Below, in pieces: positions 26,568 to 50,857 of a stretch of DNA of 64,000 bases. Position 1 is the stretch's first letter. Each line of letters starts with the position of its first letter. This DNA comes from Haliclystus octoradiatus (lineage: Eukaryota > Cnidaria > Staurozoa > Stauromedusae > Haliclystidae). The stretch covers positions 15,379,807 through 15,443,806 of the forward strand of contig OU744453.1 of NCBI GenBank assembly GCA_916610825.1, written 5' to 3'. Position numbers and translations under genes: made by a program. The notes beneath the pieces are model-generated. The model saw only the letters and a program-made list of their open reading frames with translations, was not told the DNA's origin and ran no database searches.

Positions 26568-29500
26568 ATGTATCAATGTTATTGTTTATTATTGGTCGTT
26601 GTCTGCGTTGTTATCAGTTCTGAGGCACACCCCTACCAAGGTAGGAATTACAACTTGACTATCGTTTCTGGCGACTAATCAGTTATTGATAAATTGAGTA
26701 TTAAACGTCTTAAATGTCAGTACACCAACGTTTGTTAGACATGAGTTCGATTACTGATGATATGAAGAATCTCCAGATAGATAAGAAGGGATATTACATC
26801 ACTTACGTGAGTGGTTACCGATATTTAATAATCATTTGAAAAAAAACGCGAGTCGTCATTGACAGATTTGTGTCACGCGATTTGCAATTATGTCACGCAT
26901 ACCCACACGATCTATACCCGACAGTTTCAACAGCTTGGAGAACTGGTGTTTTGAATATGGCGAAGAGCTGCGACTAATTTATTAACTGTTCTGAACTTCA
27001 AATCAAATGTACTCTGTAATAAAAATATTCAACTTGGAAAATTCAAGCAAAGTATCAGCTTACTCGACCTCCAAGTTTACATTATTAATTAGATTTTGCT
27101 GTTAGAGAACGAGTGGGTCTAAATCTAAGTGACCCATGAGCAAGAGTGATCATTTTAATAATCATGTAACATAACCTTTGCTTAGAACATCAATTATCTC
27201 TAATCAATTTCCCCACAAATAAAATTTGTTTTTTTAACTTAATGGGTCATGAATTTTTCATTAAAAACAATTTGAATGAAATTCCAACAAATATCATTTC
27301 AAACAGATGCAGATTTTATCATCCCGTTTTTCCTAGAGAAATGTAAGAAAATACCTCTGAAAAAAGCTCCGAGAGAGCATATTGTAGGAGAATTATCACG
27401 TGACTGCATTGATCACCTGATCACCTGACGAATTCATAAGCTTCAATTATTATATAGTCAAAGTAATCTTTCAGATGTATACATTTCTGAACAATTAAAA
27501 TAAACAAGCTACTTCATGGTTTGATTATCGTGTATGGTTTTATACACTTGCTGCAAAATAATGTCAAATTCCTTCAAATCGCAGACCCTTGTCTGTTCGT
27601 TTGACATTCTATCGCAAGAAACCGCATGTGCTCATCAAACATGGAGTAATCTGTATAGAGTCTGTGTATCATGATCATCACTGGGGACATATACTGAGAA
27701 TAAAATGCATGTTATTGATATTATTATTATTATTCTACCTCTTCTAGCAAATTATCATGCGCCATACTATAAGCAACAACTTGGACATCATCAATTAAAA
27801 TGCGTATGCGTTCAGTGTACGACATGGGCAAGTTGGGGTGATTGGCAGTCTTGTACTGGTCCACACTATAACTTGGTGCAGCAGAGAGTGCGGCATTGTC
27901 CACAGAACACATGTCCATTTTGCCCAGAACACGATCGAATGAGGAAACAAATACGCAAATGTCAAATACCACATGGTAAGATCATGTCATTTATTTTTGT
28001 TATTGATGAAATATGAACGTAACTCTACAGTGTCAAAGGCAAATCATCTGTTACTGTTGAAGGCTATCTCGACACAAATGTTTGCGTAATTTCGCGGTAA
28101 CAGATTATTTGTATTGCTTTGCCAGTAGACGTACATAAGTCGCAGACGGACCACAAATAATTTATTTACAAACAGACACTACTATTAATATGGATCAATG
28201 CTATTAATACTATAAATTTAAAAGACTACTATGAGTGATGATTTAATAGGAATGTAACTCTATACAATGTCAAAGGCTGAAAATATTAAACACTCAATTA
28301 AGATGAGTGAATTTCAATATTTCTCAGTTAATAATATGAAGCATTTCATGGCATCCAACAATAAAATGCACATATCCCTCAATGCTAACAAAACTGACCA
28401 GCCTTGAGTTCAATGCAAAGTTTCCATCAAGCATTTTTGAGCGTTCAATAACGCTCTGAACTTGACCTGACCACTAAAGAATCAATTGAACTAGTGATAG
28501 TTAACCAGGTTTCATACAATATTAAAGCCAAAAGGTCCTTGTATTTTGAACGTAAAATACTATGCATTATTAGTAAACATAACAAAATAGCGGTACCCTG
28601 TTACAAATTTCCTTCATTGCCGTTTGGATTGGAAGTTGTCAGTCATTGATTATTATTTTCATTATTTTAGAACAATGTTCATCATTTAGTATTTGGTCTG
28701 ATTGCACAGTACCGTGTGGTGGCACTGGACAACGAATACGAGAGAAAGTTTGTGTGACACCTAATGAAAATCCAACAACTTTGTCTACAACAGTAATTAA
28801 ATCAGAAACGTCCGATTGTCACATGGGTGATTGTCCAGGTGTAGTGTTTTTGTAATTTACCTTTATTTCGTAATTTACAATTAATATGTTATGCAATAGA
28901 GGGGAATCACATTCCTATATTGTGACAGTCTATACCATTACTATAGTGTAACCAACTTATGTGCAATTCGGATAAATGAAATTCCCGCTTATCTGCAACC
29001 TGGTTTTGAAATCCGTTAAATAATTTTTTGGTCTAGTCCTTGGTAAACAATTTCGGATAACTGCAAATTCGGATAAATGCAATGAAAACCGTTAGAAATT
29101 TTGACTTGTACTTAAGCGGGTTACACTGTAGTGAATACAACCACGTGCGCTATAATATGATCATTTTCATGGGAACGACAGACTGAAAAGCAGCCACATA
29201 AAAATCTATGAAAAATTACAATGAGATACACTGCATATAAAAGTTACATACGGAGAATATACATCTTGTGAACTGATAAGGAATCAATTGTATAAATGGA
29301 AATCATTGACTTGCCCAAGTCTCATTTTTACTATGACGATTTTGATATGTTGGTAAGTGAGACTTGTGTCCTTTGGCAATTCTATTGTTTTAGAAAACAA
29401 AGAAACCGCCAACAAAATCTCGTCGATGACGTAGTTTTATCTGAGTATTCCAGGGTGTCAACAGTCAATTCTAAACTATATTGGCTGTTCCGTGTTTTCT

Positions 29501-30204
29501 TGCCTTTGTGATGAAATGATGCAGCAGATAATTCCATTTTTGATGCATTCAAATGCATAATAAAATTGACCTGTTAAATATTGATTAAAACAGTGAATGA
29601 TCATGGGCTCGATAAATGTCGGCATAATGAACAGGCGGACCTCGGTCACTATCAACCGATATTTACCTCGCATGCGATCATTAACTGTTACTTATCAAAC
29701 ATGTCATTCTCTTTCACAGATTTCAAACTGGTTCAAGCTTCATTTACGTGTATATCAGCCGACAACGGTGCTGGAGATTCACAAGGGCCATTTGTGTTTG
29801 GTCTTGAAAGCGGAAAATATAGAATAAAATTGGTTCATTATAGTGATGGCGTTTCTTGCTCTAGTGCAAATGTAAATTGGCCTTTTGGTTGCTCTGTTAA
29901 TGACGATAACCGATTGTTAATTGCAGCAGAAAACAGCGTTCAGCCTGCAAGCATTATTTCGAAGGAACAATTCACGGGAGATGGATCTAATGGGGCCATA
30001 TTAAACTCCATTCAAACGGATGAATATTTTGATTTTATAAATGGCGACACTTATGATATTTGGTATGATGAAGCCTACGAGTTAACTACAGGAGGTGATA
30101 ACTCTGGAGAAACATGTGTTCGTGTATTTGCACAAGAATATCCACATCCAGTTCAAAAGTCTTCTCACAAAGCATATCCTAAAAACATGGGACATTATGG
30201 TTAA
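26568..30204 (+). CDS. Gene A: secreted protein with two TSP1-like modules and a lectin-like C-terminal domain (4 exons, 317 aa)
   Basis: Exons: 26568-26640 (signal peptide, MYQCYCLLLVVVCVV), 27748-27975, 28671-28838 and 29720-30204 (TAA). Every intron is phase 1 and the parts sum to 954 nt. Exon 2 encodes a Cys-rich TSP1-like module with the W..W..W pattern (TTWASWGDWQSC). Exon 3 encodes a canonical TSP1 module (IWSDCTVPCGGTGQR...C...DC). TSP1 repeats usually bind matrix glycans or proteins. Exon 4 is a single-exon domain of about 160 residues with SGKYRIKLVH, WPFGCSVNDDNRLL, DIWYDEAY and GGDNSGE. The WYDE...DNSG spacing resembles the Ca2+/sugar loop of PA-IL-like beta-sandwich lectins, which is an inference. 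Gene B, 6.3 kb downstream, is a paralogue with identical exon plan. An ATG at 27705 in intron 1 opens a hydrophobic stretch in frame with exon 2 and could be an alternative start. Confidence 0.88.
26800..27330. repeat. Interspersed repeat shared with 23.3-24.5 kb and 34.8-36.4 kb
   Basis: Shared words include TTAATAATCA(C/T)TTGAAAAAA, TTTTGAA(A/T)ATGGCGA, AACGAGTGGGTCTAAAT and AATAATCATGTAACATAACC. Orientation and order differ between copies, indicating rearrangement. This copy fills intron 1 of gene A. The third copy ends right upstream of the gene B promoter. Confidence 0.6.
28944..29128. mobile_element. TA-flanked MITE (CAGTGTAACC family), copy 2
   Basis: 185 bp, the same length and internal order as 18757-18941, flanked by TA. 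The first base of the left end has changed. It lies in intron 3 of gene A, within sequence whose flanks also occur, without the MITE, at 43858-43995. Confidence 0.85.
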
Positions 30205-30467
30205 ATATGCATGAGAAGAAAATGTATCAACAATATTTTCACTTTTAATTGATATATGATGCAGAATATCATTTAGTTTCTCATTGCTTTCTATTCTGAG
30301 TGACTGCATTTCTCGTCAATTTTACTGACCAACGTTGAGGGAATCCGATGTACTGTACCTATATAATAATGTCGCCAATTTATAACTAAAATTCACTGCA
30401 GGAGATCTTAGATATTAATAAGTGATGTTCTAGGGGCAATGGTCATCTTTTCCTTGTATTTGCATCG

Positions 30468-30473
30468 AATAAA
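30468..30473 (+). terminator. Polyadenylation signal of gene A
   Basis: The first AATAAA after the gene A stop codon, about 265 bases downstream. Confidence 0.6.
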
Positions 30474-30499
30474 GAACTCCCAAAAATAATAATATATAT

Positions 30500-31040
30500 T
30501 GAATACAAGTATAATTGAAAAGACGAATATCAGTACTTGTCATAGGGATCCTAATTATTAATGTAATGCTTTACATTGGATTATATATGCATGTAAGAGA
30601 GGTAACCTCAAAAGGAGGATACGCTAAAATTCAGCTATTTTGGATAGAGAGGCTGATGATTAATTCACTACACATCTGTATCTGTACCATTTTAGTGTCT
30701 AGTCCATGGATTCAAGGGTATTCGTTCGTTTCATTTTATAGCAAAATATTGGTAAATAGTTTTAGAAATTTGAAAAAACAGAAGCAAGAAATTATTAGAA
30801 TTTGATACTCATGCATTATTTTCAAATTTTTATTCACTTTTATTCTAGGTGTCCATACTTCTCTTTTTGATTAAATCATAAAACTAAGAAAAAGTTATAT
30901 TCCTTTTGATTTTCATGGAGTATATCTCACTCATATACTTCTGAAAATTACAAAACAACATTTACTGAAATAAATATTCTTTATACACACAAATAGAAAG
31001 TTAAAACACTGTGTAGCCTAAATCTGAGTTTTCCCAATAT
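30500..31040. other. Intergenic spacer after gene A
   Basis: A 96-codon plus-strand open frame here is hydrophobic and isoleucine-rich, as expected of AT-rich noise. It has no supporting motif. Nothing else recognised. Confidence 0.35.
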
Positions 31041-31043
31041 AAT

Positions 31044-31590
31044 TGCCCAGGGTGTAGCTCCCATTTGACGGCTATACAGAGAAGTACCACTTTTTTAAGG
31101 ATCCATATTCCAGCTGAGAAAACCTTTTTGGGTATGAGATTACAAATTTAGGAACTTTTTAGCATCCTATTTTTGACATTTTCAAGAATTTTGAAAATAT
31201 TTTGCATCATTTTTGTATATTTACTTAAAATCAATCAACCTGCAGGAGCTTTTTGGGTAGCACCTGTGGTGGTAGCTGTGTTTATAACTGTGAATGTAAT
31301 TATCGATCTGTTCTGTCTTGTATATGTGAAGTTGTAATTCTATGTATAATTAGCGTCATCACCTTATGTAATTCCTGTAATCTATCTATGTGTAATTTGA
31401 ATAATAAACTGGTTCCAGTTTGACCGTCGTCGTGTTCACTGGGACTCAGAGTCGTTTATAGCAGATCCTGCTATACGACAGCACCAACAGAATTTTTGGA
31501 ACTTCTTGTGTACTTCACCTTTTTCCAAATCGGCACCCCCCCCCCCGTACCTGAAGAGCTGGAGCTACCCCCCCCCGTATAATTGACTAT
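31044..31590 (+). repeat. GGGGTAACTCC-family element, copy 4, split by a solo LTR
   Basis: The family order is clear: TAGCTCCCATTTGACGGCTATAC, then GGATCCATATTCCAGCTGAG, TTTACTTAAAATCAATCAACC and GTAGCACC. It is interrupted at 31265-31480 and resumes with GCACCAACAGAATTTTTGG to GAAGAGCTGGAGCTACCCCCCC. Confidence 0.8.
31265..31480 (+). mobile_element. Solo LTR (216 bp)
   Basis: The insertion starts TGTGGTGGTAGC and ends GCTATACGACA, the TG...CA borders of an LTR. GCACC is duplicated on each side (31260-31264 and 31481-31485). It contains AATAAA near 31401. No internal retrotransposon sequence remains, so it is best explained by recombination between two LTRs. Its sequence is unrelated to the Gypsy LTR at 6803. 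Confidence 0.85.
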
Positions 31591-31681
31591 CTGATTTTGT
31601 CTTACTCGGCTTAGTAAATGTTTAATCGTTTTTGTCTAGTAATTTTGTTGGGACAGTAAAGTTGCGAAATGAACGTATTTA

Positions 31682-31936
31682 TTACTGAGCTTTTGAGATT
31701 CCAAGCAGTCCAACACGAGGGAGATGCGATTGTTCGTTTGCCTTGGTTTTGCTGGTTTTCACGGTTGAAATGATTTCTCGTACGTCGCTCCAGAGCTCCC
31801 TGATCAACAACTGAGTGTTTTTTAGTTTAATGCTAAGTGTTTTAGTGCAATAGCAACTACTCATTTTCCTAAGCTCTGATTCTTGATTTATATATTTACT
31901 ATATCTCCTTCGTTTAAGGTAGAATTGATTTTGCAA
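31682..31936 (-). pseudogene. Orphan open frame, possible terminal exon or retrocopy fragment
   Basis: Minus-strand frame with a lysine/serine-rich soluble composition (includes LIRELWSDVREII and SHLPRVGLLG). The stop is overlapped at once by CAGTAATAAA. An internal ATG at MSSCYCT would give 60 residues. Family unknown. Composition is more protein-like than the surrounding noise, but no upstream exon could be joined. Confidence 0.25.
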
Positions 31937-31989
31937 AATGTCAAGAAAACTGGAACTACGAAGAAAACAATCACATCTCCCCCGTGCTT

Positions 31990-33070
31990 GACTGTTTGGA
32001 ATTTCATTTCAAACGTTATACTGCAAGTGTCTTCAAATTGACGATTTGTGTAAAATGCCTGATCAAAAACATGAAATTTGAGGCGTGAAATATATTTACA
32101 TGATTCATTTTCATAAAATTACTTCATACTATATACGTACTTCATAGAGGTAAGATAAATGTCTGCCCTTTTAAAAATACGTAAAATTGCAGTATTGAGT
32201 TTACGGTATCTATCTTAGTTCTAATTATAATATCTTGCCTATATTCAATCAGTTATAAAACAGCAATCAACCAAATACATAAAATCACCGTCTAATCCAA
32301 AGCTTTCCCTGCTATTCCCGGCTATTCCATAATTTTATAGGAATTATAGGTATTAGATCGGATGGATCCCTGTAGTTTTCCTTGAATTTCAACTTCATAG
32401 ATACCATCCTGGGGAGTCTACTATTATGGGTATTTGTTTACCATTGAATATTCCATTATTCAGTCGAATCAGATCAAAATGAAGAGACGACAGCTATTGA
32501 ATTAAACAAAAGCATTCTATTGGCGCTCGTTTTATTTATCGCTCTTTTTTATCTCAGCATGGGATATTTTCATTATTGCAATTATATATATTATGAAGGC
32601 ATCAATCGAATATTAGGAAAAAAATAGCAAAGGTGAATGAGCATAGGCTATACATATATTAATATATACGGTTGTAATTACTGGAATTTCATCTAATTTA
32701 TGGTCAGGTATGTACTATGTAATTTGAAGAAATAAACAGAATAGTTTAACAGGCAAGAATTAGTAGACCAATGTGCATAAGCACACACCAACATTGGCTT
32801 TAATGATGTGTATGGTCCTGTGTATTGTTCATGAGATATGGAGATATATAACGTCATTTTATTAATCGATGTGTTCACATTCGTTTCAATATGAGCATTA
32901 AAGTAATACAACTATAAGTATGATATATCATTACCATTATCATATATCATACCATGTATCATATATAAACGTCACCAATTGGTTCTACCTTTTGTCATCG
33001 TGTTATCAATGTTTGGAACTCATTGGCTGATAGCGTTGTGACAGCAAAACATCCAATCAATTTTAGCAAT
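31990..33070. other. Intergenic spacer
   Basis: AT-rich with a few short palindromes such as the ATATCAT(ACC) runs near 32920-32965. No gene seen. Confidence 0.35.
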
Positions 33071-33076
33071 TGATTT

Positions 33077-33385
33077 CCGGGGGGGGGGGGTAACTCCAGC
33101 TCTTTAGGGACGGGGAGGTGCCATTTTGGAAAAAGGTCAAGTACCCTAAAAGTTCCAAAAATTCTGTTGATGCTACCCAAAAAGTTCTAGCAGGTTGATT
33201 GATTTTAAGTAAATACACAAAAATGATGCAATTTTTTTCAAAAATTCTTGAAAAAGTCAAAAGTAGGATACCAAAAAGCTCCAAAATTTGAAATCTCACA
33301 CCCAAAAAGTTTTTCTCAGCTGGAATATGGACCCCATAAAAGTGACAGGTCCCCGTATAGCCGTCCTAGTGGTGTTACCCCACGG
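33077..33385 (-). repeat. GGGGTAACTCC-family element, copy 5
   Basis: From a G10 run plus TAACTCCAGCTCTTTAGG to GTCCTAGTGGTGTTACCCC, with all family landmarks in order. Confidence 0.8.
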
Positions 33386-33489
33386 GAATCGATTATCAAA
33401 GGTTGACATATTGCAAAAAAATATATCTTTGTTTAACTTTGAACAATATATTAATATATTTGATTATTCATATTCATCATGCATAAAGC

Positions 33490-34800
33490 ATTTGTAGGCT
33501 CTATTTAAGTGGAAGTAGTACTTCCCATTATTTGCCTGTCAAATTTTTTACACCATTTAATTTTTTGACAAGTATATTCTATTCCATACGTTTGTAACGG
33601 TTTCTGATTTAAATCAATACACGTAAGAGCTAATATGATTGTGGATTGCAAAAAAATTATAATAAATATGAGATATCCCTTTCGGCTTGTACAGAATAAT
33701 TTATGTTGAATTTACGATGACTTAATTATTATATTACCTACTTGAAATTCATAACAAGATAGAGAGGATTCTTTAATTACAAACAGCTGCCACATTGAGC
33801 TTTTTCATAGACCTATACCAGGGGAGGGTGCAGGGTTTTTTCTGAGCAAGACTAACTTTAGAGGTTTATTCCCAGGGAATTATTGGTAGGCGTTCGGTGG
33901 TTTCTCCCCTCTAAAATGTTTGTAAACTGCACGTCTTGAGGGGCTCTTTGGTGTATTTCAGAACGTATTATTAAAAAAATATAACAAGACACTCTACTAG
34001 TATTGGAGTTGATAATTCATTAAATTGAAAGGCTGGAAAAGTTAATTAGCTACAGGAGGATTTTAATTTTTAATTTTTTGATGAATATACCATTTGTACG
34101 CAAATCATATAGTTCTTGTCATGTCATACATTACTTCACCAAAGCAAAATAGAGAATACAAGTGTCTACACAATTGAGCTAACCCAAGAGAAATGCTACT
34201 AACTCATTGAAATTAATTTATTTCAAAGCAACCGAATGCTCATGTTTACTGCCTCCAGCGTTGGTCTTGATTATTCTTCGACGTAAGAGCAGAAGGGATA
34301 AAAATGCATGGTCTATAATTGTATTTTGTTCATAAAGTAGATGATACAACGTTGCTAGCGCATCATTTTATTTGCTGAATTCTTACAAGGTCCTGATGTA
34401 GACTAGCAGAATAGTGGGACTTGGGCCTGGGCCAAGTTAGTGTGGTATAGCAATACAACATTTTCTTTGAATAATTCTCGAGGGACTCATTTGGAACCTG
34501 TAAAAAACTCTATAGCGCCATGCACACATTTTATCCGTAGAACATTGTGTAATAATATTTACATGCGTAATGCAGCCTTCTGCTTGTTTTCAGATGAAAA
34601 TATTCAGTAATTTGTCTCACTTTCAAAGTATTTTGGAGCTACTTGAAGTTCAAATTATCATTTGGCAAGACAATAAATTATTGCAGACCTATTCAATTTC
34701 AGGATTGAAAAAAGAAATTGAACTCACATCATAAACCCTTCGTAGTTGCAGACTCGATATTAACCCGTATTAATATATTAATTTTATTATTAGATATTAA
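33490..34800. other. Intergenic spacer upstream of the gene B repeat block
   Basis: No exon or repeat end was recognised in this AT-rich stretch. Confidence 0.35.
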
Positions 34801-36370: not shown

Positions 36371-36375
36371 ATTAT

Positions 36376-36430
36376 CCAATAGCAATGAAACAGTGCTCGA
36401 TGTCAGTTGACAGAGCTGTCAATATAAATA
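36376..36430 (+). promoter_or_regulatory. Core promoter of gene B (CCAAT and TATA boxes)
   Basis: CCAAT at 36376-36380 and TATAAATA at 36423-36430, about 94 bases before the gene B ATG. The surrounding 100 bp, including GTGCTCGATGTCA and GTCAAAGACTACACATT, is duplicated at 51495-51600. A strong acceptor-like TTTTACTTTTTTACAG ends at 36505, only about 75 bases after the TATA box. Confidence 0.6.
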
Positions 36431-36523
36431 TAAATAAGTCAAAGACTACACATTTTGGTACTATAACTCAAAGTTTCAAAGTATATTAATTTTACTTTTT
36501 TACAGATTGGATGAAAAATCGTC

Positions 36524-39500
36524 ATGGGCAAATGTCATATTATACTAGGGGCTATCCTTGTATACATTATAGTCATATTTGATGTACATGCATATGAAGG
36601 TAAAGTTTTGTTAATGTACTGTATGTTTATTTTAAATTATGTTAAATCATGCTGTAGGTGGGATTTGGATATAGTTGCCTGATCAAAATCTGCCTTAATA
36701 TACCGCAGTTCGAAAAGTTGTAAGCCTGGGGGGGGGGTAGCTCCAGCTCTTCAGGGGGTGTGCCAAATTGGAAAAAGGTGAAGTACCCCAAAAGTTCCAA
36801 AAATTCTGTTGGTGGTACCCAAAAAATTTCCTTGATTTTAAGTAAATATACAAGAATGATGCAAAATATTTTCAAAAATTCTTGAAAAAGTCAAAAAATA
36901 GGATGCCGAAAAGTTAATTTGTAATCTCATACCCAAAAAGATTTTCTCAGCTGGAATATGGACCCATAAAAAGTGTCACGTCCCCGTATAGCTGTTATAT
37001 GGGAGTTACCCCCGGGGTTGTAAGCGGAAAACTTACACGATGATATGAGAATTGGTAATGCGTGAAAGTATCTATGAGTGAGATGATACTTTTGTGTGAG
37101 CTCATATTTTTTTATAGCATGTCATAATATATCTACTTCAGATCATAACTCTCAATTGCTGCAACGATCTAATGTATGAATTTCAATCCATATGCTATTT
37201 GAGCAGAATATTGAGGCATGTTTAACCCTTTATTATTTCTAAATATACTATTATACATGAATACATTATGATTTAAATTTACATCACACTCGAAAAAGCG
37301 GTAAATGTAGAGGCTGGCTTATACAAATTCAAGACAATTTTTATAATCAAATTGTATTGGCAAGCGAAAAGAAACCACGCTTAAATGTTTCTAGAGTGAA
37401 ATATAGCGTTTGTAAAAAATAAAATCCAATCGTTATACCACCGGTCCTGTCACCAATTAACAAGCAGTAATAACAATATTTATTAAATCGTATTCTTGTC
37501 TTACGCCTTGTCTACGAGGAGGGCGAGTTACTCGGGTAGGCGGGTTAAGTTACTCTCTCCCTGTAAACAGAAGGAACATAAACAATAGAACCGGGTAACT
37601 CGTCTACCCGAGTAACTTGCCAATCTGGGTAACCGCCTTCCTTGTAAACAGGTCCTTATATATCTCCATGTATAGTACGCAAAATGTAACCATTTCCAAA
37701 ATGTGATCTACTTTTCTACATTTCTTTTTGGTTTCAAGCTCCGTACCATGTACCATATTACAAAAGTATGAGAGATCTTAATTCAAAATGCACATGTGTA
37801 CCATGTACGAATTGGGCATCTTGGAATGCATGGCAACAATGTACAGGACCTCATTATAATCTTAAGCAACAGCGGGTACGGCATTGTACAGAGAACACAT
37901 GCTTAAGCTGTCCAGAAAAGGATCGAACGCTAGCACAAGTCCGGAGATGTCTCGTTGCACAAGGTAAGATTAAATACAGTCTTTATAAAAGCATACTAAT
38001 CAACATTTGGTATCAGCAATTTAACAGCAAATAACAACTCTCATTATTGATGTTGTTTTCATAGTTCTGCTTTTGAGTTAAGGAATGTTTCTCCGTATTG
38101 ACATCCTTTTTCCTCGAATTTGTGTGGTGTACGCCTTGATTGAAACACGAAGACCCGATGAGCGACTCGATAAAAGCGATTAAGCCTTTGAAAACATACA
38201 ATGAAGATGGCTTGCATCAGTTTGGGATTCCAATGTACCGGATTGCCATACGAGTGAAGTTATTTTTATACATCATTGCTTATAGCGTCGTAATGTAATC
38301 AAACAAATCGAATTAATGCTTCATGATATCGTATTTCAGTTTACTACATGTGGTGATAGCGATAACGACGATAAACATATTCGCCAGCGCAAATAAAGTT
38401 ACTTTGAGGGGCCAACCAGCAGAGGGCTAATATCAACGCAAGACGATTAGATTTATATATGAATTCTTGAAAGTTGTTCTAGTGTATTCCAACGATCCAT
38501 GTATAATTTTCATTACAATAACTTTAAAGCATATGAATTAAAAAAAAAAAATAGATTTGTATTTGGTATAGGTTTTTAATCCAATGCCTGACGAAAGTTG
38601 ACTAAACATTTATTTTCTTGTTTGATATCATTTATTGAAACAGCGTTCTCCTGACAGTGTTTCTCCGCCCTTCACTAATTGATTTATAAATTTGTACCAA
38701 TTTATCAATTTAATGATTCGTTTGTTGTTCCACAGTAGATTTATTGTTGATACTATGGACACATATTCATTGTTTCTAGTTATATAATTATTATACCGCA
38801 AAGAATACAATCTCAAATTTTATATGCAATAGCAGTATCCTATATAGTAAATATATATATATATTATATGTTTTCATAATATATATACTATTTAAACAAC
38901 CCTTTTAGAGCAATGTTCATCATTTGGGCTTTGGACTGATTGCAGCATACCATGTGGTGCCCCTGGTACGAGGCAAAGAGAGAAAATATGTGTTACGCCT
39001 GATGAAGCTCCAGGTATGCTTTCGTCAGTGGAACCCAAACTTGAAATAGCTGAATGCAACAAGGGAGATTGTCCAGGTAAGTCTCAATTTCAAATGCCTC
39101 TATCTGGCCAGAGTCATCTATTTACAAGGGTTGGGACACTCGTTTGTGTGCCGCTCTCAGCTGTAATTGGACAGATGACAAACACATGGTTTGATGGACG
39201 CCATCTTTGGTTCTGTCAAACCCATGCTCGTGAAATTTGAACGAAGCACGAGAAAATAATATCATGAATTTGAAAAACCTTTTGTTCAAAAGCAAAAACC
39301 TCGTTTTCAATAGAACGAAAATGGTGATTTGCGAGCCCCAAAAGTGGCGTGTACCAACTCCTATAAATAGATGGCTCTGTGTATAGTTGTTTAAAATGTA
39401 ATGTTTAATCAAGACGAATATCGCACTTACAAATGATATACTTATTTGATGACGAATAGTCTATTATTCATGACACTCAGCATGCACTCAGTAACCTTGT

Positions 39501-41372
39501 TTTCAACATTAATTCTTTACAATATGAAATTTGAAGCAGATTCATGATGTTACATTCATCAGTTCTTTTTTTCATTTAATATTATGTAATTGGTTGATTG
39601 AGTTAGTCATTTGAATTGTTTGTTAGGGGGTGATTAGCTCAGTTGGAAGAGCAACCGAACTTCAGATCGTATCATATCTGATCGACTGTGGTTCAAATCC
39701 CCCTCAGGTCAACTCAGCCTTGACTTTATCTGAAACATCAAATGAGTACCATCTAAGGATGGCGAATGGAATGGTCCAGAGGGAATTGCATTGTGAGTAG
39801 CTGCGGCGCATCGTTGCGCATTGACAATCAAGGCCTATCTGCCATGAAATCTGTTGAAATTGATCTGCAGTGTCGCGGCTGAGATCTAAGGAGCATTTAA
39901 CATCATTGCTCTTAGCGAAAAAAGCCACCCCTCTAGAAATAGAGGGGTGGTACGGGTGCCTTTGGTAGGGCGACACCGTCCACATTACACATTTATTTGA
40001 ATTGTTACGATGATGGCAACATTACACTTCAAACCTGCACTTCAAACCTGCTTTTAATGTAATTGAAGATGTATATAGAACTGCTGCACATCTAGCAAAT
40101 AAACAAACAATCCTTTAACCCCATATTAAAAGACACTATAGCTCGAAGGCTTAAGCGATCATGCGATAATTCGATATTTACAGCTGATGCAATCTCTGAG
40201 CTGAGCTGGTTCTGATATGCAGTTTCTGATATTATCCGCACCAAAGATTTCTAAGTTGAGCTTTGATGGCAATACATTAAAGACTTGGTCCCAAACACCG
40301 TGCTAAGGAAATACCCACCAAACGAATAACAATTCAATTTCATTCTATTTATTGAACTCCTCCTTTACTTCTTTGGAGCTTGTCGTATTTCAGAATCTAT
40401 ATACTCGTACGATGAGCATACATAATATTCCAATATAAGATATAGTGTCTTTTAATATGGGGTTAAAGGATTGTTTGTTTATTTGCTCGATATGCAGCAG
40501 TTCTATATACATCTTCAACTACATTAAAAGCAGGTTTGAAGTGGAGGTTTGAAGTGTTATGTTGCCTTCATTGTCACAATTCAAATGACCAACTCAATCA
40601 ACCAATTGCATAATATTAAATGAAAAAAAATAACTGATGAATGAGCATACATAATATTCCAATATAAGAACCCATCAACTTCACTGACAATAAATAATAA
40701 AATGAGATATGAATGAATGGCTAATATAATCAATTCGTGTTGTACTGATAATTCAATTTCAAGAATTTAACTTATATATATTAGCACTTCCATCAAGTAA
40801 ATTTCTACATGAATATTATGCTCCTGTCTTTAGGCACACCAATATGCATAATAAATCATTTTTAATGTTATTTTACAGCTTTCAAATTGGTAAATTCAGG
40901 AGAAATATGTGTATCAGCAATAGATACTCCAGGGTTATTCCAATTCAACTTCGAAAGTGGAAAATATATAATCAAATTAATACACTCTAGTGGAGGAGTC
41001 AGTTGTGCTGGTGGCGCTGGTGGAACACAATGGCCATTTGGTTGTTCAGTGAATGATGATAACCGTTTGCTTATTTCGAGACTTAACAGTCCTTTAAGCC
41101 CTCGTGGTCCCATTGTTATTGATCATCCAGAATTTTCCCTGATAGAGCCTACAGTACGTGCCAGTGGAGCAGATATAGAATCTATACAAACAGAGAATTA
41201 TTTTGATTTTGAAAACGGAGAAACGTATAATATTTGGTATGATGAGCCATACGGTGAGATAAGTACTGGAGATAATTCTGGAGTAACGTGTCTTCATGTC
41301 TGGGCCCAACAATATCCGTATCCAGTTGAATCTTCCTTTTTAAAACCCTATCCACACTATCAAGGACACTAA
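36524..41372 (+). CDS. Gene B: paralogue of gene A, two TSP1-like modules plus lectin-like C-terminal domain (4 exons, 320 aa)
   Basis: Exons: 36524-36599 (signal peptide MGKCHIILGAILVYIIVIF), 37739-37963, 38909-39076 and 40879-41372 (TAA). All introns are phase 1 and the total is 963 nt. Exon 3 is exactly as long as in gene A (168 nt). Module 1 has TNWASWNAWQQC with the Cys spacing of gene A. Module 2 has LWTDCSIPCGAPGTR...C...GDC. The last exon carries SGKYIIKLIH, WPFGCSVNDDNRLL, NIWYDEPY and TGDNSGV, plus an insertion of Gly-rich residues near SCAGGAGG. Introns carry repeats: a GGGGTAACTCC element in intron 1, and a hAT MITE and a foldback with nested SINE in intron 3. A short upstream ATG at 36511 opens a different frame that stops within the signal exon. 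The role is unknown; a secreted matrix- or glycan-binding protein is a reasonable inference. Confidence 0.9.
36729..37017 (-). repeat. GGGGTAACTCC-family element, copy 6
   Basis: From a G9 run plus TAGCTCCAGCTCTTCAGG to TATATGGGAGTTACCCCCGGGG. It has the family landmarks and lies in intron 1 of gene B. Confidence 0.8.
37506..37652. repeat. Short inverted-repeat element
   Basis: CCTTGTCTACGAGGAGGGCG at the left is mirrored imperfectly at the right end (CGCCTTCCTTGTAAACAGG). Internal GAGTTACTCGGGTAG and CTACCCGAGTAACTTG form an additional hairpin. In intron 1 of gene B. Confidence 0.6.
39109..39379. mobile_element. hAT-type MITE 'CAGAGCCATC', copy 2
   Basis: The same termini as 4097-4379 (CAGAGTCATCTATTTACAAG at the left, ATAAATAGATGGCTCTG at the right). 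No clear target duplication remains. In intron 3 of gene B. Confidence 0.75.
39553..40642. mobile_element. Foldback element with nested SINE in its left arm
   Basis: The right arm (about 40441-40642) is the inverted copy of the left arm, which is split into 39553-39620 and 39995-40140 by a SINE. Shared words include ATTAAATGAAAAAAA, TTTGTTTATTTGCT and TCTTTTAATATGGGG. A 28-bp direct repeat starting GAGCATACATAATATTCC occurs on both sides of the right arm (near 40413 and 40642). Non-coding, in intron 3 of gene B. Confidence 0.75.
39621..39994 (+). mobile_element. tRNA-derived SINE family 1, full-length copy
   Basis: The tRNA-like head has an A box (TAGCTCAGTTGG) and a B box (GGTTCAAATCC), followed by about 280 bp of unique body. 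A perfect 12-bp target duplication, ATTTGAATTGTT, lies at 39609-39620 and 39995-40006. The second full-length copy is at 62622-62993. Near the 3' end a hairpin CACCCCTCTA-GAAA-TAGAGGGGTG is formed. The anticodon arm is not a functional tRNA fold, so this is not a tRNA gene. Confidence 0.9.
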
Positions 41373-41430
41373 TTGAATTAATAGTACTGTTAACATTATA
41401 CATATTTGTATTTCTATTGCTCACTTTTTA

Positions 41431-41436
41431 AATAAA
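41431..41436 (+). terminator. Polyadenylation signal of gene B
   Basis: AATAAA about 60 bases after the gene B stop codon. Confidence 0.65.
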
Positions 41437-41449
41437 CAATTAATTAAGT

Positions 41450-43080: not shown

Positions 43081-43217
43081 AATAGAGAATTTAATAAACT
43101 TTTATAAATGTTGAAATCAGTACAAATTTTGTCTACACTCCCAGAAGTATGATTCGATATTGTGCAAATTATGTCTTGTATTAGGCTTGAACAAGATAAA
43201 GTTGATTCACTTTGTAG

Positions 43218-46200
43218 TTATATTTCCTTTCTAACTAATAGCTCAAAGGTTGATTCACCCGAATTATTTCCCTCTGTAAAATTATTATAGTCTTGAGCAT
43301 ACCAGAATGAATACATTGAATCTTGAATCAGAGGGTAAAATGCAGATGTAGCTACGTATTGTGTTGTTGTACCATTACCTTCAAATTCATTAAACATGTT
43401 TTTAGAACCAATGACAGCTGCACCCCTAATACCTTTCATCAGAATTATAGCATTTGGGAAAATTTTGTTTGCTGTATAGCATCCAAATGGCATTAAAACA
43501 CCCACACATGCCAATCCTCCACTCAAATGGTTTAACTTCAAACTGTACAATCCTGATGGTAATTGAAAAGTGAAACTTCCTGGTTTTTCATTCTTCGATC
43601 CGACTTTAATTGGGTCTGACAATGTCTTGGTGTACTCTAGACACAGAATAAGATATTGATAATAATATTAATCTGTGGCTTTAAGTAATTTGGAAATTTT
43701 GAAATTCACTGAATACTTTGTGTGTACTCATGCATGTACCAATTGATATTTTAAGACCAACTTAACATAACAAAATCTTTTTTTAAATTGTTATTGTGAA
43801 TTGCAGACAAGGGAGCACAATCAACATTATTGCTGAGACTACCGATAAGATTTTCTTTTATGTCGTAATTTACAGTAAATACAATCACATGAGCTATAAG
43901 TTCGTTTGCGTGGGAACGAAGGACTGGCCATCAGTATCATTTATAAAAATCCACTTGAGAATACAATGAGCTATTTACCCATTAGTGTGTGGCTATCGTG
44001 CTGCTATATTAAAATATGTCATCTAAATAGGAACTCAAACGATTTCTATGTCAGCATAGATTGTTGCCAATGTAGTACCCATTGCAGTTCCAGATTTGCC
44101 AGTAGATTTGATAATTGTACAGAGAATATTGGATCAATAGGATAACCTGAATGCTATCAAATGGAAACGGAATAGTATATATAGAATTTGTATATATATA
44201 ATATATAGAATATGTCCCTATACCCTAATACTTACGTTTTTGATAATTCTTCTATTGTTTTATTAACTGAAACATTTTTGATAGATTATCCAACATATGT
44301 ACCAGATTATTATCCATTTATTTTACCTGCCAAAACCCCAACAGGTGCTGGTAGCTGTCCTCGTGGTGGAATTTTAATCTGATGTAAAAGTTATTTACGT
44401 CCTACCTCTCTTGGTTCAGAAGTACATTGGATTGTTATTTCTACTAGATTTTTCAATATTTCGTGTTTTTATTTTCAACCTCAAACTGACGTCCATAGCT
44501 CTTCTTTGAACTTTTCTATTATCAATGATATGTTGAAACCTACCTACGTTGGCCCTTTTGGTAGCAGTACCATAGAATTTTACCAACTTGTCACCTACAC
44601 AATTAGTGTCACATTATATTATACCTGAAGTACAAAGGAAGCACCAGAAAGTCTGTACGTCATGGTCTTTTTCTAATACTATTATCCCTAACAAAGAATC
44701 CTTGCCAAAGCTAAAACGTTTCGTTGATTGTAACAAATTAATAAATCATCCTTTGCTAGAATAAGCCAATATTGCGTTAGAAAACAGACATGTTGAGGCA
44801 TTACTCCATTTTATTGAAAAGGCATTGATTGACTGTTGTCCAAATTCAAATGAAACAAAGCAACATCATAAAAAATGGTTTGATAAAGAATGCAAAGAAT
44901 TAAAACACTCAACCCTTTCTCTATTGGATCAAGTAATGCAACATTCAAAAGATATTTCCTTAAGAAATCAGTACCATCTAGCTAGAAAGCAATATCGCAG
45001 CCTTATTAAAGAAAAGAAACAAAATTACCACGAAAGATCAATATTCACTCTTCTTGATAAAGCAACAAAAAAGCCATGGTTACTTTGATAAAAATCATAC
45101 AAGAATAGCCGCACCTATTGCACCTTCTCGTTTACAGTCTCATTCTAAAGCACTACTGGATCCAAATAATAAACCTCCTATGCTAGCATTTGATGAACTT
45201 GATATTGGTTATGATGATATAAATGACTGCATGATAGATGATGATTTGTTCAACACATTATTCGGCGAAGAAGAAGTCCTAGAGACAATACTTATGACAT
45301 CAAAGCGCAATGCCCCTGATTTAGACCGAATTACAAATGAACACTTGTGTTATTCTTTAGATACTTTATTACCATTTTGGACAAAACTTTTTAATTTGTC
45401 TTTGAAGTTTGGTTGTGTTCCGTCAAGTTGGAAGTGCTATTAAATTATTATACAAAAGTAAAGGTTCAGCAGAAGATCCTGTAATTACCGTTTTTTTTTT
45501 TTGGATTTATCATTTTTCCACGAACCGGGTAAGCTTACAGCTTTTTTTCACCGGGGTGGTTGGTTAATTTGTTAGTATTTTGAAGCTTGTGTGCATTTAA
45601 TAGCCGGATGCCCTTCCTGACGCCAACCTATAGTGCTCCGGACAGGGATTGAACCTGAGACCCTGCGGGCCGTGGTCCAACACCCTAGCCACTACACCAA
45701 GGCCGCACAAGGCCGTGGCATTGCTCTTCTATGCAAGCTACTAAACCTTACCCGGTTTATAGTAAAATCTTAAATCCAAAATCAAAATCAATGACGTAGC
45801 CGTAGGATTTGATATGCTTTCTATAAGTGGTTTCAAAGAATGATTAACGAATCTGACAATCTCTCACTATGCGATCGAGTCACAGGTGGAGACTATGGGC
45901 AATCCCCGAATGTCAATTCTACTGGATCTTAAGTATGATGATGAACAGACCCTCAAGTGTATTGTCTGCCACAGTTGTTAGTAGCAATTGTATATTGGTA
46001 TCACTTGGTCCTTCATGTCTTAAATTTTTGCGAAATACGACAATGGCAGAGGATTTGCGTTGAGTCCTGTGAATATTTGAAGACTTAGTAGGGTAAAATT
46101 ATAATTTTTCAACAGTTGAATTATCCCCGTCATTATAATTGAGGAAGGTGAGGCTCCACCCTTATCTTCACTTTTGAAAACAAGCCTGTGCCTAACCGTC

Positions 46201-49200
46201 ATCTCAATAGGAATTTTTTGAGTTTGACTATTACTTTATTTTAATTATTATGCTCGTATAATAGACTATCAATTTTATAGTCAAGTTGGGATAGTGTTAT
46301 TCCGACGACTCACTCCCGCTATAAATAAGAGTTCCCTGTAATGAGTCATAGACCGCTATAAAGGCGATGTACTCTTGAATGTTGATTATCACCGGGCTCC
46401 AGTAAGCCATGATTTTTTGCCAATGATTAAATCCTGCTGGTATTTTTTTAATGGAAAAATAATGCCATGCCTTCAGTTCTCGGTATGGATCTCGTGTAAC
46501 TCTATCTTTGAGAATGTTTTCGTTAGTTCGAGTATCATGTCTGTGGTGTGAATATAGTTTTATTATTAGACTGGTCCAAAAAAATGAAAGTTTGAAAGTT
46601 GAATTGCATTCTTGTTCTTATTGTTCTTATGGTTACGAAAGTCATAACTGAAGATTTTGAGTTCAAAAATGATGGGAAATGGGCTCTCAATGCCCCTCCA
46701 AAATAATGCACAAAGTCAATGGGGAAGCGCTCAAAAATTTCAAAAAATTATAATTTAATTTCAGGAAGGTATTTTTGAATAACTTTTTATGTCTATGAAG
46801 GTAATAATCTCAAAGGTATCACTGTGGCATTCAAAAGTCTATTGGATGATGAGAACCTATATACTGAAAATTTGTGTTTCCAAGTGATGCATTAGATTGT
46901 ATGGCTTCCTCTGTGATTGTGATAGATCATTCAAGTGTGTGGTTTTCAGTTCTGCGGAGGTATTGACAGATGTTAATTTAAACTTACTATGATTTGTCAA
47001 ATAATTGTTGGATACTGTTTGTAATATAAAAACTGATATTGACAGTGGTTTTTTGTACATTTTTGTTGGAAAATATGAGCATATCAATGATCCAAAATTT
47101 GTGTAAAATTAAATCTGGCAAACACCTTTCCATTTCACACCTATTATTAGTTTTATAGAAGATCACACAATTCTATAATCTGTCAAAATCACATTGGAAG
47201 CCATACATTCAAATGCATATAAACTTTGAAACACAAATGTTCGGTATAGCCGGGTTTTCATCCAATATACTTTTAAATGCCACAGTAATATTTTTGAAAT
47301 TGTTCCTTAATAGACATAAAAAGTTATTCAAAAATACGTTCCTGATATTTAATCATATTTATTTGAAATTTTTGAGAATTTTCTCCATTGACTTTGTATA
47401 TTAATTTGGAGGAGCATAGAGCGTCCATTTCCCAATATTTTTTCGAACTCAAATTTCGAATTTAGGATTTTCTTGACCCACTAGAACAATAAAATTAAGA
47501 ATGAAATTCAACTTCGAAACTTTTATTTATTTTGGACCAGTCTATTTATTATGTTATTAGGTGTTTTGTTATTATCATAAATTCAACGGTAATTTTGTAT
47601 AGAGAAAGAAACCAAACATTATTAACCACCAACTCCTTGCCATGACAAACAACAACAACAGTAGCATTAAGATTATCAACAAATTGTGACAGTTAAACAA
47701 AATTATTACCTGGTATTTTGAACTGGAAGTCGATCTGTATAAATATGACGTAAAAATGAGTTATTGAAAATGTTGCAATAAAGGAATAATAAAAAATATA
47801 AAGTAGTGTTGACTTAGTATCCAATTTCCTAAATCTTTTACCTAAGCATTTGTTTAGTACATAGATTATAGAATACAGGGATTGGCAACTCTATTGTTCT
47901 CGGCCGTGCGGTCAGATTATGATGAATTTGGCGCGAAACAAAGTCACGTGATTTTCACCCGACACAAGAATTGAGCTGAGCAGTCAAGCCTTGTAATCTT
48001 GGTAACTTTCATACGATAATATCCTACGTTGCTGAAAGTTTTGAAGTTTTATGTTTCAATAATGTTAAATAGGGCTTACTTTAACTGTCCATGTCAATTT
48101 AATTACGTTTAAACAAAATAACGAGTATAGATATGGCCAATTTAATTCACCATGTTTGCGTTATATTCCACTAAAATATTGCTTTGATCACTTTCGCAAG
48201 TTGCAAATTAATATTTGTAACTTTGCAAAAGAAAATGTAGGTGATTGAATTATTCTACAAATATATTTATAACTAACAAATCACAATCAAGCTGAAATGT
48301 TCACTGAAAAATAATTGCGCTTCTAATGACAGGAATACAGTTTACAGCTTGGCGGCCTAGGCTAACAATATACAGTAGCACAAAATGCAATCAACAATTT
48401 TCATCATACAACACACAATCCGGATAGGGTATGTATTACAGCAGAGGGGATACAATGAAAACATTACAAAATTTACCAAGCAATACAGAGAATAAACAGG
48501 ATATGGCGCAAATATCGATAACTGGCTTGTAGAAAATTTTTAACATTTGTAAAAACATTCAGTGCCGGTTTGTTACATTTATGATTTCGTTGTTACGCTT
48601 ACATTTACAATTCATTTTACACAATATCAAATTATGGATGTTCACCTTATATTTAAGTTATTCAGATTTATGTTGAATTGCTGTTTCTTAAGTTTGAATT
48701 TTCTTTTAAATTGTTGCTTAGTGATTCCTTTTTCAATTCCAGTTTCTCTTTCAAGCAGTAAGCCCATGTCGTTCGTGTACGAAAATTATCTCACTTCATA
48801 TATTAAATTATAATACCTTGTAGACAAATAAAAGTAATTTTATCAGTATTGTTATCCTCTAAACCAGAGTGTTGTACTACTACAATCAAGCTAGAATAAA
48901 TTTTGGCTTTTGCAAAACATTCAAGATTCAAGCGTGTTGCTTCAAGAGTCCATCTGATCTCCTTATGATTAATTACGAAATTCTTTTTCACATTTCTACA
49001 TTCACAACAATAATGAATACATTTTCCGAAGGTGCTCATCCACGCAATGAATTCCAGATAGATATTTTTATTACTGACGAGCATATTGTAGGGAATAGAC
49101 CAAAATTGTTGAACATCTTTGACACATAATCTCCAGAAATGTCTGAGGAAATAACTCATTCGTAGTAACTTTTAAGAATAGCAGATTCATTTTGCCGTGA

Positions 49201-50857
49201 ACATATACCTTTATCTTCATCGATGGAAAATTTTATATTAGTGTGTTTTGATTGTGTGTGAAGGGTTACCGATACCGTTAAACCACCTTTGGATTTGCAA
49301 ATCCTTCAGCAATTTTAGCACAAATTAAAAATTCTGTGGGTGCGCTCTTCTAAACTTTCATCGACTGAGTTCACCATTTTGTTCCTCGCCTTACACGTTG
49401 AAAAAATTCGAAGTACTGAAAGTAACTGCTATTCAATTGACCATCCATTTCAAAATAATGAAATAATCAAGTGGACTTTAACTATAGCCACCTTGAAGAT
49501 ATGAAAGATGATGAAATGTGTAGAACAGTCGACCTCGTTGTTGAAATGACAATTGTGAAAATTTCTCACAAAATTCTGTGTCGGGTGGAGATCACGTGTT
49601 TCGAGAAAATCTCAACAAAAATCATATTTCATGCTCAGACCTTAGTTGCCAATCCCTGTATTCATTATTCCATTCTATTCCATGTTTAGTACAATAAACT
49701 GCAGTTTGGTAATTTTACCTTGATAACCATTTCTAATTACACGCAATAACAACAATACAAACAGGGCTACTAAAGATATAATAAATATATTTGTATTTGT
49801 TTAGCAGCATTATGTATTTGTTTAGATTTATTAATAACGCTTTCGCTGCCCTCCGGTAGCTCCTTCAATGAAATTTACCCACTGTTTGTTGTTGTTGTTG
49901 CGTGTACTTAAAAAAATGGTTATCAAGGGTAAAATTACCAAACTACAACATGTTGGTAAAATGCGTGTTTAAATTGTACATTGACGTAAGTTATCATCGG
50001 AATACTTTCCGAGCGTAGCGATAAAAACTTTTCGGGCCCAAAATTTCTCTAGTCCGTCCTGATCAAACATCAAAAGTTGAAGATAATTGACTCCATATAC
50101 AGTATTCATCGGATTTTTGTGGACATAAAATTAAAAGAAATCTCTTGGAAAGCGAACCTTACAATATTCCCTTCTATTTCTTCCCTCTTTTGCCAACTGG
50201 AGATATTTCAAGGAAGATTCGACTGACCAAGTCGCCAAGGGATGTCACGCCCCCAATATCCCCATACTAGGAACGGCCCTGCACATTTCCCCAGCTATTA
50301 AGCAATTGGCACACATTCTCCGAGCTATTGATATTTTGCACACGAGTGGTACGTAAGAGACAACGAAAAGGCAACGCTGTCAATGTCATAATAAGCTAAT
50401 CAGATATTCAAAAATTTATCAATATTCGTATATCTAAAACTTCTCTAGTTTTATTCTCTAGTAAACAAACTAGTTTTATTTCGTAAACTGACCGAGCTTT
50501 TTTCAATATACTTACGGGTGTAATGAATATTGTATCTGTCATTTCATCTTCTACAAGAAGCAGATCCAGTCCATTGATGCAGTACAATTTGCAGTTGGCC
50601 TTTACAGTTGTTCGTTTATCGAAGCTGATAGCTTTGCAAAATAATTCAGAGACGCATTTTTTTCGGCACAAAAATACTGTTGGTAAATTACTAATAGTCA
50701 TCATAACTTCCATTGAATCAATAACATGGTTTTTAAAGTATCTTCCCTTATAATTGTCAGGTGCGATTGGTTTATCTTGACAATCATTGCTTGCGTACAC
50801 TGAGTTTGGATTAAACAAACAGAAAGCCAAAGATATAACTTGAAAAGCAAGTTCCAT
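43218..50857 (-). CDS. Gene C: secreted PAN/apple-domain protein with the same lectin-like C-terminal domain (3 exons, 261 aa)
   Basis: Exon 1, 50516-50857 (donor CCC|GTAAGT, phase 0), encodes a signal peptide (MELAFQVISLAFCLF) and a domain with six cysteines in the PAN/apple pattern (FLCRKKC...LFCKAISFD...C.LYC). The last exon, 43218-43636, is the third copy of the C-terminal domain of genes A and B. It has SGLYSLKLNHLSGG, MPFGC, YSFWYAQDY and EGNNSGE. A 25-nt micro-exon at 47710-47734 (acceptor TTATACAG, donor CAG|GTAATA) converts phase 0 to phase 1 and makes the frames fit exactly (786 nt in total). It is the least certain part. PAN domains bind proteins or carbohydrates in other systems. 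Intron 2 holds a LINE relic, a SINE and a foldback. Intron 1 holds a 1.8-kb hAT element. Convergent with gene B. Confidence 0.72.
43858..43995 (+). repeat. Relic of the gene A intron-3 sequence
   Basis: TCGTAATTTACA, AATACAA(C/T)CAC, GAGCTATA and TGGGAACGA follow in the same order as at 28866-29220 in gene A, without the MITE found there. It lies in intron 2 of gene C, opposite to the gene C sense, and may be debris of a further TSP1-gene copy or a dispersed repeat. Confidence 0.5.
44215..45790 (+). pseudogene. LINE (non-LTR retrotransposon) relic: endonuclease and start of reverse transcriptase
   Basis: Broken frames read in order as follows. The EEP endonuclease part has a VLLTETFL block, PRGGILI and CFYFQPQTD, with a stop in between. 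The linker has KWFDKECKELK and YHLARKQYRSLIKEKK. The RT entry region has NAPDLDRITNEHL and LKFGCVPSSWK, then YKSKGSAEDP. It is interrupted by a SINE at 45487-45713, and the RT frame resumes with RGIALLCKLLN. Several stops and frame changes make it inactive. It is located in intron 2 of gene C on the opposite strand. Confidence 0.85.
45487..45713 (-). mobile_element. tRNA-derived SINE family 2, copy 2 (inserted in the LINE relic)
   Basis: On the minus strand it starts with GGCCTTGGTGTAGTGGTTAG (A box) and has GGTTCAATCCC (B box) about 50 bases on. The body runs TAGGTTGGCGTCAGGAAGGG to a GGTAAG-type 3' region on the opposite strand and a poly-T/A tail. It matches 20222-20465 throughout. Confidence 0.85.
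45800..46560. other. Intron 2 of gene C, unassigned
   Basis: Possibly more LINE debris just after 45790. Otherwise no exon or repeat was recognised. Confidence 0.3.
46569..47542. mobile_element. Long foldback element, ends GACTGGTCCAAAA / TTTTGGACCAGTC
   Basis: Arms of roughly 350-400 bp are inverted copies with moderate divergence (landmarks TTTGAATAACTTTTTATGTC, TTGGAAGCCATACA, TTCCATTGACTTTG). The centre is near 47000-47110. No transposase. In intron 2 of gene C. Confidence 0.8.
47876..49658. mobile_element. hAT-type element, 1.8 kb, ends CAGGGATTGGCAACT
   Basis: Inverted ends start CAGGGATTGGCAACT and continue with partial identity for about 100 bp (CACGTGAT..CACCCGACACA). CAGGG(A/G)TTGGCAA termini are typical of Charlie-like hAT elements. 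No target duplication was recognised and no transposase frame is intact. In intron 1 of gene C. Confidence 0.75.
49703..49944. mobile_element. MITE with AGTTTGGTAATTTTACC ends
   Basis: 242 bp with about 30-bp inverted ends (AGTTTGGTAATTTTACC(C)TTGATAACCAT). It contains a (GTT)n run near 49887-49902. In intron 1 of gene C. Confidence 0.75.

What the first reader, a model, noticed from the sequence alone, without database searches (positions are those of the whole stretch)
26568..50857. A three-gene cluster sharing an unrecognised, possibly lectin-like C-terminal domain
Genes A, B (TSP1 x2) and C (PAN) are different at the N-terminus but end in the same single-exon domain of about 140-160 residues. 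Shared marks are SG(K/L)Y..KL.H, (W/M)PFGC and a WY(D/A)....(D/N)NSG loop near the end. Each domain exon is entered in phase 1, so it behaves as a movable module. The WYD...DNSG spacing recalls the Ca2+- and sugar-binding loop of PA-IL-like lectins (D...NNSG), which would make these secreted glycan binders with different targeting modules. The domain identity is my inference; I do not recognise it as a named family.
Basis: partly seen in the sequence, partly recalled or inferred. Interest (0 to 1): 0.82.

Follow-up and report, generated by a model that had tools for sequence, protein, structure and literature searches.

The report
Jellyfish lectin genes with swapped front-ends
Three neighbouring genes of what appears to be a stalked jellyfish end in the same sugar-binding-type domain, a relative of a known sea-anemone lectin, joined to different front modules; they belong to a very large family in this genome, so the domain is known but its numbers and partners look new.

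Summary
A and B (+ strand) and C (- strand) end in one homologous single-exon domain (A/B 54%, C/A-B 28-30% identity; 0 of 500 shuffles reach any pair). A and B are four-exon genes joined in phase 1. C needs a 25-nt microexon between its PAN exon (phase 0) and domain exon (phase 1).

A and B keep the three side-chain ligands of AJLec's sugar-site Ca2+; C has two changed to amides. Galactose-contact Arg64 is not kept, so the sugar is open.

Assembly lengths match Haliclystus octoradiatus, Staurozoa. At least 228 places encode the domain; four genes have the TSP1 front. New variant of a known kind.

The parts
26568..26640 (+). Gene A exon 1: start codon and signal-peptide-like stretch (hydrophobic core MYQCYCLLLVVVCVVI)
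   Evidence: exon model, donor gtagga, phase 1; hydropathy peak 3.81
27748..27975 (+). Gene A exon 2: Cys-rich, TSP1-like module 1
   Evidence: borders; no Pfam match at E<=10; 61% identical to the B exon
28671..28838 (+). Gene A exon 3: TSP1 module 2
   Evidence: PF00090 E 1.4e-8, 35.2 bits against cut-off 21.6
29720..30204 (+). Gene A exon 4: AJLec-type lectin domain, C-terminal tail and stop; Ca-site residues E, D, N kept
36524..36599 (+). Gene B exon 1: start codon and signal-peptide-like stretch
   Evidence: hydropathy peak 3.13
37739..37963 (+). Gene B exon 2: Cys-rich, TSP1-like module 1; 4 matches in the genome
38909..39076 (+). Gene B exon 3: TSP1 module 2
   Evidence: PF00090 E 3.1e-7, 30.9 bits against cut-off 21.6
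40879..41372 (+). Gene B exon 4: AJLec-type lectin domain, tail and stop; Ca-site residues E, D, N kept
50516..50857 (-). Gene C exon 1: signal-peptide-like stretch and PAN-like module, donor in phase 0
   Evidence: PAN_1 20.4 bits, cut-off 21.4; 118 genome matches; donor shown
47710..47734 (-). Gene C exon 2: 25-nt microexon, phase 0 in, phase 1 out, encodes IDFQFKIP
   Evidence: inside a block shared with L030 (blastn E 2.5e-7 over 61 nt); same exon at L029 and L030, not found at L031 and L043
43218..43636 (-). Gene C exon 3: AJLec-type lectin domain and stop; E141->Q and D150->N, N151 kept; lacks the C15-C156 pair

Best explanation
The shared C-terminal exon encodes an AJLec-family lectin domain. 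A and B are secreted proteins (signal peptide, TSP1-like module, TSP1 module, lectin), and C is a secreted PAN-lectin protein. Most likely mechanism: the lectin domain of A and B holds one Ca2+ through the E141/D150/N151 equivalents and main-chain oxygens, one of them at the conserved Cys48, and binds two neighbouring hydroxyls of a terminal sugar on a microbe, prey item or tissue surface. The N-terminal TSP1 or PAN modules hold the protein to matrix, mucus or partner proteins. Specificity differs between members because the residues round the Ca2+ vary. C has probably lost or changed calcium-dependent binding. Shown here: exon anatomy as a prediction, homology, fold match, residue conservation, copy number. 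Inferred: secretion, calcium and sugar binding, the role of the N-terminal modules, the biological target.
Against: Both AF2 models rest on three sequences (mean pLDDT 65.8 and 60.8). In C, residues 118-128 of the calcium loop are below 50; in B the block 121-130 averages 55. For C, Foldseek ranks AJLec second by E-value (0.01), behind a viral capsid chain at 0.0044, and no hit reaches 1e-3. Arg64, which AJLec uses for galactose, is kept in 1 of 24; Tyr97 in 1 of 24, so galactose specificity is not supported. AJLec's interchain Cys122 is present in 3 of 24, none of them A, B or C. C has amides at two of three Ca2+ ligands. The full E-D-N trio is present in only 12 of 24.
Confidence: 0.75

Rival explanations
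1. The domain has the AJLec fold and ancestry but now mainly binds proteins or serves as a structural cap; calcium stabilises it and glycan binding is lost in many members.
For: Galactose contacts are not kept (R64 in 1 of 24, Y97 in 1 of 24) and 12 of 24 lack the exact E-D-N trio. C has Q and N in place of E141 and D150. A second structural Ca2+ site looks kept in many members (acidic or amide residues at all four places in 15 of 24).
Against: N151 and the Cys48-Cys61 pair that frame the sugar site are in 24 of 24, and A and B keep the whole side-chain trio while losing the second site. The AJLec paper reports the sugar-site Ca2+ ligands conserved in anemone and coral homologues although the galactose contacts vary.
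Confidence: 0.2
2. The genes are PA-IL (LecA) family lectins, for example by ancient transfer.
Against: No PA-IL model among the Pfam matches of 24 members at E<=0.1; LecA not among the 7 PDB profile hits to E 10; a scan of bacterial and archaeal genome contigs with the three window domains gave 43 pattern stretches, none confirmed as a relative; AJLec's authors argue for convergence.
Confidence: 0.03
3. The PAN exon and the domain exon of C belong to two different genes, and C is a one-domain lectin.
For: C's two exons are about 7 kb apart; the phases do not fit directly; no transcript seen; the microexon was not found by my pattern in L031 and L043.
Against: Of the 39 best PAN matches (cut chosen by me), 18 have the domain within 6 kb downstream on the same strand, against 0 on the opposite strand and 3 upstream; at 10 kb, which takes in C's own pair, 24 against 1 and 7; over all 118 PAN matches at 6 kb, 22 against 0 and 3. 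The microexon fits both phases.
Confidence: 0.1

Closest known systems
AJLec, lectin of the sea anemone Anthopleura japonica (PDB 6a56; PMC6070535, parts 1-3 of 6 read)
   Same: Profile match E 3.4e-15; same fold by structure comparison of the B and C models; Cys48-Cys61, Cys15-Cys156 (A, B), sugar-site Ca2+ ligands E141/D150/N151 (A, B), F103 in 22 of 24.
   Different: AJLec is a signal peptide plus the domain alone and a disulfide dimer through Cys3/Cys122. A, B and C carry TSP1 or PAN modules and lack Cys122. Arg64 and Tyr97 differ, and A/B lack the second Ca2+ site. AJLec homologues were reported from anemones and corals only (2018; [quoted passage not shown] this genome appears to be a staurozoan.
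PA-IL / LecA of Pseudomonas aeruginosa
   Same: Small jelly-roll, Ca2+-dependent galactose binding (AJLec paper).
   Different: No sequence relation found; coordination pattern and quaternary structure differ from AJLec's; called convergent by the AJLec authors.
Cnidarian TSR (thrombospondin type 1 repeat) proteins (PMC5446238, passages read)
   Same: Cnidarian proteins with TSP1 modules in new combinations (astacin, VWA, trypsin, ShK, Ig).
   Different: No AJLec-type lectin partner appears in the passages returned; the rest of the paper was not read.

Membership tests
AJLec lectin family | Sequence homology to AJLec above chance | tested here: met
   Profile of 24 copies: 6a56 E 3.4e-15, next 0.094
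AJLec lectin family | AJLec jelly-roll fold | tested here: met
AJLec lectin family | Side-chain ligands of the sugar-site Ca2+ (E141, D150, N151) in A and B | tested here: met
   E, D, N in both
AJLec lectin family | Side-chain ligands of the sugar-site Ca2+ in C | tested here: not met
   Q, N, N; its closest aligned relative L017 keeps E, D, N
AJLec lectin family | Disulfide Cys48-Cys61 | tested here: met
   Both Cys in 24 of 24 aligned copies
AJLec lectin family | Galactose-contact Arg64 | tested here: not met
   1 of 24; N in A and B, A in C; the alignment just after this residue is gapped
AJLec lectin family | Covalent dimer through Cys3/Cys122 | tested here: not met
   Cys at column 122 in 3 of 24, not in A, B or C; Cys3 not examined
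AJLec lectin family | Ca2+-dependent binding of terminal beta-galactose | not testable with these tools
   Needs purified protein
PA-IL-like lectins | Match to a PA-IL sequence profile | tested here: not met
   No such family among the Pfam matches of 24 members at E<=0.1
PA-IL-like lectins | Fold of LecA | tested here: inconclusive
   LecA is not in the 50 rows shown by each; absence there does not exclude it
TSP1 (PF00090) | Pfam score above cut-off | tested here: met
   Second module of A and B: 35.2 and 30.9 bits against 21.6; 30.5 and 25 in the whole proteins
TSP1 (PF00090) | First module of A and B also TSP1 | tested here: inconclusive
   No Pfam match at E<=10; W/Cys/Arg pattern TSP1-like by eye (pattern recalled)
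PAN_1 (PF00024) | Pfam score above cut-off | tested here: inconclusive
   C: 20.4 bits against 21.4, profile 6-52 of 76

The most novel reading that the evidence does not exclude
Staurozoans have turned the AJLec lectin fold into a large, diversified recognition repertoire (at least 228 domain exons on nine of nine chromosomes), with exon-shuffled front modules (PAN repeatedly, two TSP1-type modules in four genes) and variable sugar and calcium sites: an animal-lineage lectin array for sorting microbes, prey or self, in which members such as C have switched from calcium-dependent to calcium-independent recognition.
Probability: 0.3. Interest if true: 0.75.

Novelty: new variant of a known kind. 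Interest (0 to 1): 0.5.

Why it matters
AJLec was described as a lone lectin of anemones and corals (7 predicted homologues in Nematostella and 29 in Stylophora, PMC6070535). Here the same fold appears in what the assembly lengths say is a medusozoan class, with at least 228 coding places, and joined to adhesion-type modules. That gives a set of natural variants for asking how one Ca2+-lectin site changes specificity. None of 24 copies matches a Pfam family, and the one relative found in the protein database, from Exaiptasia, is named uncharacterised, so such genes are easily passed over in annotation.

Tried and rejected
Rejected: 'unknown domain' (AJLec match). PA-IL family (see rivals). An alternative C middle exon at 46313-46537: by my reading it fits the last acceptor's phase but not the PAN donor's; it has no Pfam match, no tblastn match outside the window at E 1e-3, and only an off-frame hit of E 0.002 at L029 and a 12-residue hit of E 0.034 at L043.

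Led nowhere: Pfam on the domain (only sub-threshold chance hits); first protein search with B alone (34 candidates, none at E<=0.01); Rfam and tRNA scans of the window (0 matches); genome-contig scan (0 confirmed of 43 stretches). The microexon pattern found the exon in L029 and L030 but not in L031 or L043. LecA does not appear in the 50 rows shown, which excludes nothing. Paper searches: AJLec+thrombospondin (0 papers), AJLec-like (0), PA-IL-like+cnidaria (0), Haliclystus octoradiatus+lectin (1 paper), staurozoa+lectin+gene family (12 papers, 8 listed), and two wider ones. The papers were seen as listings and, except PMC10377782, not opened; only PMC5446238 was opened, in passages. Absence from this open-access library is not absence from print. 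No collection of eukaryote genomes or transcriptomes was at hand, so whether other cnidarians have TSP1-AJLec or PAN-AJLec genes is untested.

Rows dropped: the 24-row alignment A1 uses 24 of the 228 places. It holds the three window domains and 21 others picked by me from the upper half of the list. L001/L002 (same as B/A) and L009-L012 (duplicates of L003, L005, L006, L007) were left out, and L013 (nearly the same as L008). Both 150-row searches are capped by the tool. 20 of 150 rows and 4 of 150 carry stops inside the matched stretch; some of these matches may simply run past the domain's end.
Full report
Where the window is. The window lies in a 261.9-Mb genome of 33 contigs. Contig lengths 39,977,743 (C1), 28,991,210 (C5) and 20,733,292 (C10) equal the longest, N50 and N90 lengths in the genome note of the stalked jellyfish Haliclystus octoradiatus (jrHalOcto1.1, 33 scaffolds; PMC9975415, part 1 of 2 read), and the 18,316-base C33 fits its 18.3-kb mitochondrion. 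I therefore take the window to be chromosome 8, positions 15,379,807-15,443,806, of that staurozoan. This identification is by assembly statistics, not by a named record.

Anatomy. Genes A and B are tandem four-exon genes on the + strand: signal-peptide exon, Cys-rich TSP1-like exon, TSP1 exon, domain exon. All six introns are phase 1 with AG/GT borders. The second module of each passes the Pfam TSP_1 cut-off; the first has no Pfam match. Gene C on the - strand has a signal-PAN exon that ends in phase 0 at CCC|GTAAGT. At four related loci, L029, L030, L031 and L043, the PAN exon also ends in phase 0 at a GT. Its domain exon begins in phase 1, so a direct join would break the frame. Comparing C's 6.9-kb gap with the 1.6-kb gap at L030 gave one strong shared block (blastn E 2.5e-7, 61 nt; the next has E 0.067). 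It contains a 25-nt exon with phase 0 in and phase 1 out, encoding IDFQFKIP in C and INFQFIIS at L029/L030. L029 and L030 are near-identical copies, so they count as one comparison. The exon was not found at L031 or L043 with my pattern.

How it should work. AJLec holds its sugar-site Ca2+ by the side chains of E141, D150 and N151 and main-chain oxygens of C48 and M147. It binds galactose O2 and O3 through the metal and uses R64 for hydrogen bonds (PMC6070535). In the alignment with AJLec A and B have E, D, N. C has Q, N, N, while its closest aligned relative L017 has E, D, N, so the two changes may be recent. Cys48, Cys61 and N151 equivalents are in 24 of 24; E141 in 17 (D in 2); D150 in 17 (N in 5). 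The Cys15-Cys156 pair is present in 18 and wholly absent in 6, never half; the six form one clade in a FastTree tree (support 0.954), so this is probably one loss. R64 is kept in 1 of 24, so galactose cannot be claimed. The second Ca2+ site of AJLec is lost in A and B (A or P at D142) but looks kept in C (E, D, N, E). My reading is that A and B are secreted Ca2+-dependent glycan binders of unknown sugar, anchored or clustered by their TSP1 modules, and that C is a PAN-tethered lectin with a damaged or altered calcium site. Secretion, binding and anchoring are inferences.

How common it is. Their union is 228 places on nine of nine chromosomes, a lower bound; 160 of 228 fall in groups with gaps of at most 50 kb. 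The first TSP1-like exon of B has 4 matches in the genome and the second module 11. The four sets of both exons with a domain exon are A, B and two genes at 17.40-17.41 Mb on the same chromosome, and the four domains form a clade with support 0.996: most simply one origin and later duplication. The PAN exon has 118 matches. Of the best 39 (a cut chosen by me), 18 have the domain within 6 kb downstream on the same strand, against 0 when strands are flipped and 3 upstream; at 10 kb, which takes in C's own pair at 7.3 kb, 24 against 1 and 7; of all 118 at 6 kb, 22 against 0 and 3. So PAN-lectin is a recurrent architecture, though most PAN matches have no listed domain near by. Of 21 upstream regions compared, four (L029, L030, L031, L043) shared the PAN exon, and two more (L032, L034) shared a different Cys-containing exon with a hydrophobic start; the L032 copy has no Pfam match.

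Novelty. The fold and basic chemistry are known. New, as far as the calls go, are the staurozoan occurrence, the size of the repertoire and the TSP1 and PAN pairings. The AJLec paper reports 7 Nematostella and 29 Stylophora homologues and calls the family confined to anemones and corals; a 2023 review says cnidarians. The LectomeXplore paper names sea anemone lectins among the classes when it describes the predicted lectome of a soft coral (passages). Three paper searches for these combinations returned nothing and two on this species or class returned 1 and 12 papers that I saw only as listings, in an open-access library. No eukaryote genome collection could be searched.

Noticed in passing
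window 7121-11005 (-): Two long ORFs with aspartyl protease (below cut-off), reverse transcriptase, RNase H, integrase zinc-binding and integrase core matches: an LTR-type retroelement split over two ORFs.
   Followed up: partly
window 53793-57058 (-): Three ORFs that match parts of a UDP-glucuronosyl/glucosyltransferase (PF00201).
   Followed up: partly
window 3739-4035 (-): Trypsin-like serine protease exon (PF00089 E 9.5e-19).
   Followed up: partly
window 39566-40629: Foldback element in the last intron of B: 149-nt inverted arms, 94% complementary, and a second pair of 54-nt arms. A tRNA-like stretch near 39630-39712 (by eye; ARAGORN found none in the window) has similar stretches at L029 and L031: looks like a tRNA-derived repeat.
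   Followed up: partly
G000:C10:6580479-6995116: Two tandem arrays of AJLec-type domains (7 and 18 places, 18 being the largest group), with near-identical repeats and some copies with stops inside the match.
   Followed up: no
L032:2617 and L034:7136: A shared exon with a hydrophobic start and Cys pattern upstream of AJLec domains (41% identity, E 3e-25), no Pfam match for the L032 copy: possibly a divergent PAN-like or new front module.
   Followed up: partly
window 43218-43636 (-): C alone among the 24 aligned copies has amides at both acidic Ca2+ ligand positions (QNN): a natural double E->Q, D->N change.
   Followed up: partly
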